A stretch of DNA of 64,000 nucleotides, from the NCBI RefSeq assembly GCF_007754155.1, contig NZ_CP037423.1, positions 7,870,938-7,934,937 of the forward strand, written 5' to 3'. The notes under the pieces were generated by a model, which did no database searches, was not told the DNA's origin, and saw nothing but the letters and a program-made list of their open reading frames with translations. The translations under genes and the position numbers were made by a program. Below, piece by piece: positions 24,612 through 64,000 of this stretch. The stretch comes from Stieleria neptunia (lineage in GTDB: Bacteria > Planctomycetota > Planctomycetia > Pirellulales > Pirellulaceae). Numbering within the stretch: the first letter of the stretch is position 1; each line of letters begins with the position of its first letter.

Positions 24612-26019
24612 CTTTGGGGGGTGTGCGTCCAGGCTGCGTGAATTTCGCAGCCCCGAGTTTAGCGGTATCACGTCTACCACCGTGAGATCGATCCGCCGGA
24701 TCGACCGCATTGACCGGGTGGATTCGCAAGATTCCCGCGATCGCGATGCGGCTTGGTGCCGTGCGTTGGGTCGCGTGGCGGCTGGCCGCCTGTCACCGTG
24801 GCATGATCGCAAAGGGAGCTTGCACCCATTCCTGCGAGATCAGGGTGCGAAGGCCTTAAGAGGATTTTGGAAAAAAGCTTCTTGCTTCTCTCTCGTTTTC
24901 AAGTCATTGATCGTGGAGGGTTTTGTCACTCTCCCCCTGGGGGTTCTTCGCGGATTTTAGTGGCTGCTCTCGGATACTCGGGGAAGGTTTTTTGAGGGAT
25001 GACTGCGATGTCCGATGGTTCTGTTCGGTCTGATGGCGAAGCCAGCTGTAGCGGAGACGGGCTCTGCGGAGGAGCAACCCGCCTAGAAATCACCTGGTCT
25101 GCGATGCGGCGAAGGTGCTTCGTGCCCTCCACCGGCCCGCGTCGCCGGAGGGGCGTTTGAACCGAGCGGTTGTCGTCCAACACCCATTCGGACATCGCAG
25201 CAATGCCTCAAACAACCTGGGTCCTGAGTGATTAGCCATTAATATCGACGAAGCCCCCCTGGGAGAGTCGATCGTAGCGAGGAGAGGGTTTGCGTTGTTG
25301 CTTGGGGGCGCCCATCAAGAGTGAAGTGAAACAGGCGTTTCACCGTTCGACCTCCCCTCGCTTCGCTCGACCCTCCTGCCAGGAGGGTGACTTCACCTCA
25401 ATGACGAACTGACGTCTTAACTTGTTGCGAGAAGACGGGCTTTTTTGTTGTGTTCTCGGTGAACCACATTCCACTGCGACAGCCGGTGTCGCTCGGGTTC
25501 ACGGTGGACCGTGCGATCCACACGCTCAACGCTGGATCGTGGCAGCGATACGCTTTGGTTGGCGAGCCCACGACGCTGGCTTCCACGTGACGTTCTGACT
25601 GTGCGGCTCGGCACAGGAGTGATCGCGTTCGCGTGCTGTGATGGCTGCGGCTGGGCGAATGGGCGCGCTTCGCAGTCGACGTCTCAATGCCACCTGCTCT
25701 GACACCAAACGGGGTGTTTCTTGTTAGCGGTAGGGCGCGAGCCCTCCGGTCTTTCACGGTGTTTTTGAAGGGTGACCGGACGGCTCGCCATTCCGCTCGC
25801 TCCTTCAGTGCCAAAGTAGATGGCCTTGGGCGACGGCCCTCTGGGGCACAACGGAATGCTTGGGAACAGGAGTTGCTCACGGCAAGCATTGTTCCCCCGT
25901 TCCTCCGCCGAGTGGTGAGCGCGTGTGCGTGCGAGGTTCGATCGAAACGTTAATCGTGTTGAGAGGTCGACACAGAGAATGAATCCCGCAATGGCACCTC
26001 GACAGACGGAGCGGAAACA
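24612..26019. other. Long repeat-rich gap between the giant gene and hoxE
   Basis: Apart from the inserted element (24942-25254) and its split host palindrome (24915-24941 and 25264-25300), this gap has a CTCGCTTCGCTCGACCCTCC / CCAGGAGGGTGA segment near 25350-25392, and a GTTAGCGGTAGGGCGCGAGC repeat at 25723-25795 that is related to copies at 31051-31132 and 54138-54194. I found no protein with gene-like composition. Regulatory sites for the hox operon should lie in the last 200 bases, but no convincing -35/-10 or -24/-12 pair could be assigned. A GGAG ribosome site at 26002-26012 precedes hoxE. Confidence 0.6.
24942..25254. mobile_element. MITE-like element, copy 1 (313 bp), with 9-bp target duplication
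   Basis: The element is nearly identical along its length and in the same orientation to 53177-53492. It starts GGTTCTTCGCGGATTTTAGT and ends in an imperfect inverted copy of that sequence. A second inverted block lies inside: TTTTTTGAGGGATGACTGCG on the left pairs with the complement of CGCAGCAATGCCTCAAACAA on the right, so the whole element can fold into a long hairpin. The 9 bases CCCCCTGGG occur directly on both sides (24933-24941 and 25255-25263). The interrupted target is a known repeat of this window whose intact form is at 44131-44190. No transposase is coded inside; open frames crossing it are not gene-like. Mobilisation in trans by an unidentified transposase is inference. Confidence 0.85.
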
Positions 26020-37294: not shown

Positions 37295-37441
37295 CGGTTT
37301 TTCAAGTACGACGGCCCTTCCGGGCCGTCGTCCGTTGGACTTCCGGTTTTTCGAGTACGACGGCCCTTCCGGGCCGTCGTCCGTTGGACTTCCGGTTTCT
37401 CGAGTACGATGGCCCTACCGGGCCGTCGTCCGTTGGACTCC
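37295..37441. repeat. Three tandem 49-bp units, each with a strong GC hairpin
   Basis: The unit CGGTTTTTCGAGTACGACGG continues through CCCTTCCGGGCCGTCGT and TTGGACTTC, repeated with period 49 at 37295, 37344 and 37393. Each has the self-complementary ACGACGGCCC/GGGCCGTCGT stem. A 26-bp flank at 37445-37470 (CGACGACCTAGAAAGGACGT and on) is present exactly, in inverse orientation, at 63874-63899 beside a related hairpin. The array lies 12 bases after the patatin gene and may act as its terminator. The rest of the gap to 37858 has no gene; 37508-37560 resembles 53681-53735. Confidence 0.9.
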
Positions 37442-44130: not shown

Positions 44131-44190
44131 GGGTTTTCGTCACTCTCCCCCTGGGAGAGTCGAGCGTAGCGAGGAGAGGGTTTACGTTGT
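44131..44190. repeat. Intact copy of the palindromic repeat split by the MITE at 24942
   Basis: The repeat reads GGGTTTTCGTCACTCTCCCC, CTGGGAGAGTCGAGCGTAGC and GAGGAGAGGGTTTACGTTGT. CTCTCCC (44143-44149) and GGGAGAG (44153-44159) form a hairpin. It matches 24915-24941 joined to 25264-25300, showing what the target looked like before insertion. Confidence 0.85.
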
Positions 44191-52831: not shown

Positions 52832-53120
52832 ATCCAGGCCGCCAATCCAGGTCAACGTCTGACCGCAACCAGGCATCGCAGTGAGGCGGACTGCGGTTGC
52901 CGACATCCGATCCGGGTCCCGAGGAAAAACATTCGTTGAGTACGCCCGAAGCGAACCGACCATTCTGATCGCATGCTTGCGGTCAAAAACGTGCCAATCC
53001 GCGCGCTAGCGAACCAACTCAACCGCTCAACGCACACCTTCGAAACCGGCCGCGCCGATTCGCACTGCACATCATCCACTTTGGCACTCAAGCATTTAGC
53101 AACGCTCGGTCCATTACAGG
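52832..53120. other. Short gap, nothing recognised
   Basis: Frames here are short and not gene-like, and no clear terminator follows the PII gene. Bases 53081-53120 lead into the hairpin element. Confidence 0.5.
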
Positions 53121-53175
53121 GTAGTGGACGAGGTTACGAGTCCTATCGCGAGGGACTCGTAACCGCGTCCACTAC
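53121..53175. repeat. Intergenic hairpin with 23-bp arms, target of MITE copy 2
   Basis: GTAGTGGACGAGGTTACGAG plus TCC (53121-53143) pairs with 53153-53175 with one mismatch, leaving a nine-base loop. The right arm runs directly into the inserted element, and the arm end TCCACTAC is part of the target duplication. Confidence 0.92.
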
Positions 53176-53176
53176 G

Positions 53177-53492
53177 GGTTCTTCCGCGAATTTACTGGCT
53201 GCTCTCGGATACTCGGGGAAGGTTTTTTGAGGGATGACTGCGATGTCCGATGGTTCTGTTCGGTCAGATGGCGAAGCCAGCTGTAGCGGAGACGGGCTCT
53301 GCGGAGGAGCAACCCGCCTAGGAATCACCTGGTCTGCGATGCGCCGAAGGTGCTTCGTGCCCTCCACCGGCCCGCGTCGCCGGAGGCGCGTTTGAACCGA
53401 GCGGTTGTCGTCCAACCCCCATTCGGACATCGCAGCAATGCCTCAAAAAACCTGGGTCCTGAGTGATTACCCACTAAGATCCGCGAAGAACC
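53177..53492. mobile_element. MITE-like element, copy 2 (316 bp), with 9-bp target duplication
   Basis: This is the same sequence as 24942-25254 with scattered substitutions. The left end GGTTCTTCCGCGAATTTACT and the right end, whose complement is GGTTCTTCGCGGATCTTAGT, form a terminal inverted repeat of about 22 bp. The direct repeat TCCACTACG lies at 53168-53176 and 53493-53501. An internal second inverted repeat allows a long hairpin. The minus-strand frame through it (53143-53430) encodes a peptide shared by both copies, but it extends past the element border in each case, so it is not a gene. No transposase is present. Confidence 0.88.
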
Positions 53493-53589
53493 TCCACTAC
53501 GAAAACCGACACCTATTGGTCGTGCGGTGTTTTTGAAACGCAACCGGACGGCTCGCGGGTTGTCGTTTTAGTCGGGTTCTGCGGAGTTA

Positions 53590-63603: not shown

Positions 63604-64000
63604 GTTCAAACGACTTGCGGAGCGGAACAGCGGAGCAGACGCGGCGAGGCAGCACGCCGCAGTCACCATTGTAGCGCCCGAGGGCAAAAAAGGCGCCCGC
63701 AGCTGACCATTTTATGATGGTGGATCGCGTTGCGACGGAAATCCGTTGGTGTTTCGCTGCTTCGGACGTCGATTCTTTTACCGCAGGATATTGGCAACCG
63801 ATTTAGATTCTCTCCCTCTGGGAGAGACGGCGATTGCGCAGCAAGCAAACGCCAGAGGTGGTCGGCGGAGGGGTGTACGACGTCCTTTCTAGGTCGTCGC
63901 GCAGAGCCCCACGGGCGACGGCCCGGAAGGGCCATCGTACGTCAGAAAAGCGATCGCCCTAAGCTGGACGGTCTCTAACCCGGATATTGCATCCGCTGAT
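63604..64000. other. Gap to the right edge with hairpin repeats
   Basis: Bases 63874-63899 are an exact inverse copy of 37445-37470, followed by GGGCGACGGCCCGGAAGGGCC, a relative of the 49-bp repeat hairpin. TTCTCTCCCTCTGGGAGAGA at 63807-63826 is another member of the palindrome family seen at 44131. No gene is supported. Confidence 0.65.

What the first reader, a model, noticed from the sequence alone, without database searches (positions are those of the whole stretch)
24942..25254. Two-copy MITE family with terminal inverted repeats and distinct 9-bp target duplications
Copies at 24942-25254 and 53177-53492 are near-identical over about 315 bp, share inverted ends GGTTCTTCGCGG, and are flanked by different 9-bp direct repeats (CCCCCTGGG and TCCACTACG). 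That combination is direct evidence of transposition, not of tandem duplication. No transposase is inside, so it is non-autonomous. An internal second inverted repeat makes a long hairpin. I know of no named element with these ends.
Basis: seen in the sequence. Interest (0 to 1): 0.78.

Follow-up and report, generated by a model that had tools for sequence, protein, structure and literature searches.

The report
Palindrome-targeting MITE carrying conserved RNA-like module
This is a short parasitic DNA element, copied dozens of times in a planctomycete genome, that inserts mostly into one kind of palindromic repeat, probably using another element's enzyme, and carries inside it a folded RNA-like sequence that also turns up in viral contigs, a plasmid and another transposon.

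Summary
The window's two copies belong to a MITE family in Stieleria: 31 bounded ~316-bp copies and 18 longer ones in this genome. Movement is shown by exact 9-bp duplications (17 of 49 bounded copies; 30 of 49 allowing one mismatch) and an orthologous empty site for copy 2. The ends are ISL3-type. Of 19 other ISL3 copies with placeable ends, 11 duplicate 8 bp exactly, but an ISL3 with 11 copies in another Pirellulaceae genome duplicates 9 bp (10 of 11) in the same type of palindrome. No ISL3 transposase with such ends was found in this genome. The longer copies hold an IS110 element in one internal loop; 14 of 18 share a ~200-bp deletion in its gene. The MITE interior is a covarying RNA-like fold without an Rfam 15 match above threshold. 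It recurs in another planctomycete MITE, upstream of an ISL3 transposase, on an Acidisarcina plasmid and in two viral contigs. Best reading: an ISL3-mobilised, target-specific MITE carrying an undescribed structured module; its function is unknown, my guess being a leader RNA of the ancestral transposon.

The parts
24942..25254 (+). MITE copy 1 (313 bp; right end lost ~3 bp)
24933..24941 (.). Left 9-bp target duplication CCCCCTGGG of copy 1, part of a CTCTCCC-CCT-GGGAGAG palindrome
25255..25263 (.). Right 9-bp target duplication CCCCCTGGG of copy 1
53177..53492 (+). MITE copy 2 (316 bp, both ends intact)
   Evidence: L024
53168..53176 (.). Left 9-bp target duplication TCCACTACG of copy 2; present once, as TCCACTATG, in the empty orthologue in G005
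53493..53501 (.). Right 9-bp target duplication TCCACTACG of copy 2
25038..25222 (+). Conserved structured RNA-like module inside copy 1
   Evidence: core 25038-25115, 78.9 bits
53273..53457 (+). Conserved structured RNA-like module inside copy 2
   Evidence: core 53273-53350, 84.4 bits
53297..53312 (+). Conserved apical sequence CTCTGCGGAGGAGCAA of the P1 stem-loop; the IS110 of the composite copies sits in the matching loop of another MITE copy
44143..44159 (+). Unoccupied target palindrome CTCTCCCCCTGGGAGAG with nearly the same flank as copy 1 (paralogous empty site)
   Evidence: (D7)

Best explanation
A miniature inverted-repeat element moved in trans by an ISL3-family DDE transposase of a type that duplicates 9 bp and prefers a symmetric CTCT-CCCNNNGGG-AGAG target, which explains its concentration in one palindromic repeat family. 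No such enzyme was found in this genome. The interior is not filler: it holds a structured RNA-like module that an autonomous ISL3 element (G121) carries upstream of its transposase. My inference is that the MITE arose by internal deletion of such an ISL3 element, keeping both ends and the module. Later one MITE copy received an IS110 element in the module's loop, and that composite was amplified by the same route. Shown: mobility, 9-bp duplication, target preference, ISL3-type ends, nested IS110, a covarying fold. Inferred: identity of the enzyme, origin by deletion, any function of the module.
For: 9-bp flanks identical in 17 of 49 bounded copies and within one mismatch in 30 of 49, against 1 of 49 identical at 8 bp and 0 of 49 at 10 bp. 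Of the 16 of 49 copies outside the palindrome, 10 show the 9-bp duplication with at most one mismatch. Orthologous empty site. 33 of 49 copies have a palindrome half at a junction, while 147 palindromes with at most one mismatch remain unbroken genome-wide. ISL3 elements of Pirellulaceae have ends such as GGTTCTTCCGGGAATTTAGTGG. The ISL3 of G209 combines such ends with exact 9-bp duplications in 10 of 11 copies and the same type of palindromic target in 10 of 11; its protein matches PF01610, PF13542 and PF14690, as does the G121 protein. The G121 ISL3 carries the module.
Against: No ISL3 transposase with such ends was found in the genome: only one decayed fragment at C1:528326-528978, closest to a different set of ISL3 proteins. 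Of 19 non-G209 ISL3 copies whose ends I could place, 11 have exact 8-bp and none exact 9-bp duplications, so the end sequence alone does not predict 9 bp, and the G209 protein was not resolved as a separate clade. No similarity between MITE and the G209 ISL3 beyond the ends was detected. 19 of 49 copies do not show the 9-bp duplication within one mismatch. The G121 element's own ends are only loosely similar and its duplication is unclear.
Confidence: 0.75

Rival explanations
1. The IS110-type recombinase carried by the 18 longer copies is what moves the family.
For: It is the only transposase gene found inside any copy; the longer copies look recent (4 full proteins and 14 shortened ones at 99-100% identity, rounded).
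Against: The inserted element has its own layout inside the MITE: about 255 bp before the gene and 15 bp after it, both junctions the same within one mismatch in 17 of 18 copies, and MITEs in Stieleria sedimenti and G013 show the uninterrupted sequence. 14 of 18 copies lack about 200 bp of the gene. MITEs occur in G002, G005 and G013 where no protein match was found at 1e-60, though a G002 contig starts inside the IS110 junction. Composites also have exact 9-bp duplications at the MITE ends (L085, L090, L098, L101 outside palindromes). IS110 elements typically lack TIRs (PMC11208160 passage).
Confidence: 0.05
2. A DDE transposase of another family, with ISL3-like ends by convergence, moves the MITE.
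For: 9 bp differs from the 8 bp of 11 of 19 other ISL3 copies measured here, and no matching ISL3 was found in the genome.
Against: The G209 ISL3 matches in end type, duplication length and target at once; a 1317-bp element in G436 whose ends match the MITE at 20 of 22 bases encodes a frame matching PF01610.
Confidence: 0.15
3. The sequence is a conserved structured RNA gene at fixed sites and not mobile.
For: The interior covaries across distant genomes.
Against: Dozens of scattered sites, distinct target duplications and an empty orthologous site.
Confidence: 0.02

Closest known systems
ISL3-family insertion sequences of Pirellulaceae (PF01610), especially the G209 element
   Same: End sequence type; for G209 also 9-bp duplication and palindromic target
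   Different: The MITE has no transposase gene; its interior matches the G121 ISL3, and the model found the module in no other ISL3 locus given to it
Bacterial MITEs as a class (RUP, NEMIS, ERIC, Nezha; named in a passage of PMC3733652)
   Same: Size, TIRs, no coding capacity, hairpin fold
   Different: Strong preference for one palindromic repeat; carries a module found in viral contigs and a plasmid
IS110 family (bridge-RNA-guided; PMC11208160 passages)
   Same: The element nested in the composite copies: DEDD and Transposase_20 domains, long left and short right non-coding ends
   Different: It is a passenger; the MITE itself has TIRs and target duplications
REP-targeting insertion sequences (Tobes and Pareja 2006, seen only as a title in the reference list)
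   Same: Insertion into repeated palindromes
   Different: Here a non-autonomous element with DDE-type duplications

Membership tests
MITE | Short, TIR-bounded, many scattered copies | tested here: met
   31 bounded copies of 316-331 bp
MITE | Target-site duplication and empty site | tested here: met
MITE | No transposase gene inside | tested here: met
   At 80 aa or more, only a 95-aa frame (53143-53430, -) and the end of an 85-aa frame (52973-53230, +) overlap copy 2; a 316-bp element is too short for a DDE transposase
MITE | Shares ends with an autonomous element | tested here: met
   ISL3 elements of Pirellulaceae and G436; none found in the same genome
ISL3-mobilised element | ISL3-type terminal repeats | tested here: met
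   22-bp ends, e.g. 20 of 22 with G436
ISL3-mobilised element | 8-bp duplication, usual in the family (recalled; 11 of 19 non-G209 copies) | tested here: not met
   MITE makes 9 bp; the G209 ISL3 makes 9 bp too
ISL3-mobilised element | Mobilisation by an ISL3 transposase | not testable with these tools
   Needs a transposition assay
IS110 (for the nested element) | PF01548 and PF02371 domains | tested here: met
   NF033542
IS110 (for the nested element) | Bridge RNA guides matching target and donor | tested here: inconclusive
   Three guide-like matches of 7 nt with shuffle frequencies 0.105-0.246 and one of 6 nt with 0.638; one 8-of-9 match looked for after seeing it by eye
IS110 (for the MITE itself) | Typically lacks TIRs | tested here: not met
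   MITE has TIRs and duplications
Any Rfam 15 RNA family (for the module) | Match at gathering score | tested here: not met
   None in the window; permissive scans of L204, L075 and L238 gave nothing on the module; on copy 2 one sub-threshold match to dauA RF04311, 17.2 bits against a cut-off of 45, E 3.1. L239 and L247 were not scanned

The most novel reading that the evidence does not exclude
The MITE interior is a member of an undescribed structured RNA class carried by mobile DNA (MITEs, an ISL3 transposon, phages, a plasmid) across at least two phyla, which serves those elements, for example as a leader RNA of the transposase or a factor acting on phage and transposon DNA, and MITEs spread it as cargo.
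Probability: 0.42. Interest if true: 0.75.

Novelty: new variant of a known kind. Interest (0 to 1): 0.56.

Why it matters
It ties a MITE to a kind of ISL3 transposase whose 9-bp duplication and palindrome preference can be read from genomes, so target choice by ISL3 enzymes becomes testable with a natural set of 33 used and 147 unused sites. The covarying module shared by transposons, viral contigs and a plasmid, without an Rfam family, is a concrete RNA candidate to test. The composite copies show an element of the bridge-RNA-guided IS110 family spreading as cargo of a MITE.

Tried and rejected
The 8 right-arm matches looked at first like an autonomous element whose IS110-type gene moves the MITE. 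I dropped that reading after seeing fixed IS110 junctions inside a MITE, an uninterrupted MITE in S. sedimenti, ISL3-type ends and 9-bp duplications.

One-ended matches in G001 and G013 (L071-L074) were checked as possible autonomous elements by listing frames and comparing L071 with L072, L073 and L133 by BLAST; no transposase was recognised by eye and similarity stopped at the ends. Exact 22-bp ends in two Verrucomicrobiota assemblies were solitary. The decayed ISL3 of this genome is closest to ISL3 proteins other than the G209 one. A tree of 24 ISL3 proteins left the G209 protein unresolved among 8-bp relatives, so 9 bp is not shown to mark a clade. I read the module for a time as an IS1111-type bridge RNA because it starts about 25 bp after an IS110 gene on pACPOL3. 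In three of 7 fetched relatives (Salinibacter, Vibrio, Thermus) a sequence like ACAGTATC soon after the stop codon looks, by eye, like the element's end, the other four being unclear; so I take the module as flanking DNA, but the bridge-RNA reading for pACPOL3 is not excluded. Bridge-RNA guide matches for the Stieleria IS110 were weak. Of the two viral contigs, L237 matched only in the short loop, by eye inside a coding sequence, and I dropped it (16.1 bits, E 0.4). Plasmid searches with the MITE, the L204 module and the L075 stretch gave none, none and one match to a group II intron gene; with the L239 stretch only itself and a 35-bp match. Phage-record searches gave 3 marginal matches and none.

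Full report
What is there. The two copies are at 24942-25254 and 53177-53492, with exact 9-bp duplications CCCCCTGGG and TCCACTACG read directly. The ungapped 300-bp repeat covering them is 95% identical. The genome is one 10.98-Mb contig (G000). One search scored 40 of 89 candidates and reported 31 near-full copies, one truncated copy (L027) and 8 right-arm matches, besides short self-matches of the inverted ends. A left-end pattern with up to 3 mismatches matches 51 places in this genome and occurs in 4 other genomes, all of the same genus (5 of 241 family genomes in all). One search names Stieleria sedimenti; four of its contigs have the lengths of G002 contigs C49, C42, C32 and C5 (lengths), so I take G002 as that species and the genus as Stieleria.

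Bounded copies. I gave 52 loci of this genome; 49 had both ends placed: 31 MITEs of 316-331 bp, 16 longer elements, and two miniatures of 223 and 121 bp. L027, L076 and L093 lacked one end. One-ended loci L092, L095-L097, L099 and L100 were left out before that count. The 9-bp flanks agree exactly in 17 of 49 and within one mismatch in 30 of 49; at 8 bp 1 of 49 and at 10 bp 0 of 49 agree exactly. The end finder misplaced eroded ends such as copy 1 (L001, counted as a miss), so the 9-bp count is conservative. 19 of 49 do not show it within one mismatch; eroded ends or recombination are possible, and I did not separate them.

Empty sites. The flank of copy 2 was found in five other Stieleria genomes. 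In G005 (86%) the DNA runs through ...CTCGTAACCTCGTCCACTATGAAAACCGACAC... without MITE and with a single target; in the other four the sequence diverges before the site. Copy 1 lies in a repeat whose unbroken paralogue is at window 44143-44159 with closely similar flanks.

Target. 33 of 49 bounded copies have at least one half of CTCTCCC-NNN-GGGAGAG within 2 mismatches (24 of 49 both halves within 3); 16 of 49 do not. The genome keeps 147 palindromes CTCTCCCNCTGGGAGAG with up to 1 mismatch, with no match to the backwards control. In the window 2 were found against 0.01 expected.

Which enzyme. A search of 392 genomes drawn from the phylum found ends matching at 20 of 22 bases 1317 bp apart in G436, around a frame matching the ISL3 family PF01610. 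Among 241 Pirellulaceae genomes 49 have PF01610 at 1e-30, none of the 14 Stieleria among them. From 30 such loci plus 20 further copies, ends could be placed by script for 31 of 50 rows, one copy being present twice (L202 = L217). Outside G209, 11 of 19 have exact 8-bp and 0 of 19 exact 9-bp duplications. In G209, 10 of 11 copies have exact 9-bp duplications and 10 of 11 sit in a palindrome of the same type (mostly CCCTCCC-NNN-GGGAGGG). The G209 protein has the three ISL3 Pfam domains. Its place in a tree of 24 proteins was unresolved. In this genome PF01610 found only a decayed fragment without matching ends, closest to other ISL3 proteins.

The longer copies. They contain a 465-aa IS110-family gene (distant relative of IS621). 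4 of 18 are complete and 14 of 18 share a deletion of about 200 bp. The insert lies between two copies of a CT/AG dinucleotide inside the MITE loop CTCTG-CT-GAGG; both junctions are found within one mismatch in 17 of 18, L093 being altered. S. sedimenti (L043) and G013 (L038) have MITEs with the uninterrupted sequence, and an S. sedimenti contig (L049) begins with the junction. The right MITE arms of 16 of 18 composites that could be cut out are 96-100% identical to L061 and 87-90% to window copy 2, so one insertion followed by amplification is the simplest account (inference). Exact 9-bp duplications at the outer MITE ends of L085, L090, L098 and L101, all outside palindromes, show that the composite moves by the MITE route.

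The interior. Copy 2's interior matches the 5' non-coding region of the G121 ISL3 element (L204: 73% over 67 nt, 78% over 46) and, at 69% over 164 nt, a MITE-like insertion in G040 (L075); L075 lies in a broken group II intron-type reverse transcriptase gene, recognised by eye and by a plasmid match to ltrA. A loop pattern found two viral contigs, of which L238 extends beyond the loop; L238 in turn found the plasmid pACPOL3 of Acidisarcina polymorpha (73% over 147 nt, E 3e-13). On 14 sequences, 10 of them close MITE relatives, 15 named pairs are 90% paired; 6 pairs and 9 cells change on both sides, reached by 0 of 500 shuffles, while slid controls have 1-4 such pairs. I chose the helices by eye on these same sequences and left out the 3' helix P3, which aligned poorly outside the MITEs, so the test is not blind. 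In L238 four of the six outer P2 pairs fail. A model from 9 sequences was searched in 84 loci (361 kb): L204, L075 (also held as L035), L239 and L238 match by construction; new were both window copies, L047 (two places) and a weak hit in L237 (E 0.4); no other ISL3 locus given matched. A later pattern scan found another viral contig, L247, which scores 69.5 bits though not in the model, with different bases in P2 and P1 that mostly still pair. In window copy 2 two of the 15 pairs are broken, which fits a decaying passenger. Rfam 15 gave no match at gathering score in the window; permissive scans gave nothing on the module in L204, L075 and L238 and on copy 2 one sub-threshold match to dauA (17.2 bits, cut-off 45, E 3.1); L239 and L247 were not scanned. 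The strand is not settled: counting by hand, 12 cells are G-U on the MITE + strand and 9 are A-C, which would be G-U on the other, and a hairpin acting as DNA is not excluded. The composites moved although their module is interrupted, so an intact module is not needed in cis (inference).

Function. For the MITE: DDE-type transposition in trans (outcome shown, enzyme inferred). For the module: it lies upstream of, and on the + strand antisense to, the G121 ISL3 gene, so I guess a regulator of transposase expression. Against that, no ISL3 gene was recognised in the frames or annotations I listed near L238, L247 and L239, so the module may be older or more general. This step is weak.

Print. Searches for MITE with Rhodopirellula; IS110 with MITE and passenger; ISL3 family with MITE; Stieleria with insertion sequence; ISL3 family with 8 bp and palindrome terms; REP with insertion sequence and Planctomycetes; ISL3 with 9-bp palindromic target; and MITE with Planctomycetes showed no account of this element in the titles and abstract starts listed (three of these found no paper, and one search listed 8 of 9). 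One search listed the bridge-RNA papers; one search listed one survey of structured RNAs, seen as title and abstract start only. I saw passages only of PMC11208160 and PMC3733652. Subscription journals and ISfinder were not searched.

Noticed in passing
window 4239-24812 (-): Open frame of 6857 aa; MITE copy 1 begins about 130 bp upstream of its start.
   Followed up: no
window 53122-53176: Long inverted repeat (GTAGTGGACGAGGTTACGAGTCC... / ...GGACTCGTAACCGCGTCCACTAC) at whose foot copy 2 inserted; the G005 orthologue keeps the hairpin with small changes.
   Followed up: partly
G000, 147 places; window 44143-44159 and 63810-63826: Abundant repeat with palindrome CTCTCCCNCTGGGAGAG; flanks of occupied sites fall into at least two types by eye; nature unknown.
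   Followed up: partly
window 37295-37441: Three tandem 49-bp units holding CGACGGCCC-TTCC-GGGCCGTCG hairpins.
   Followed up: no
L141 (Opitutaceae) and L142 (Pedosphaera): Exact 22-bp MITE end, one per genome, no transposase recognised among the frames listed; my hand estimate of chance hits for that scan is about 0.03.
   Followed up: partly
L239:1915-3148 (Acidisarcina plasmid pACPOL3): Another IS110 gene ends about 25 bp 5' of the same module, a second case of an IS110 next to or in it.
   Followed up: partly
L047:1182-1258 (-), G013: Second, weaker module match (29.3 bits, E 2e-4) beside the first in opposite orientation.
   Followed up: no
L093 (G000:C1:3570332-3573332): Composite copy whose IS110 left end is joined to the MITE arm at a different CTC-AG, either a deletion or a second insertion.
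   Followed up: no
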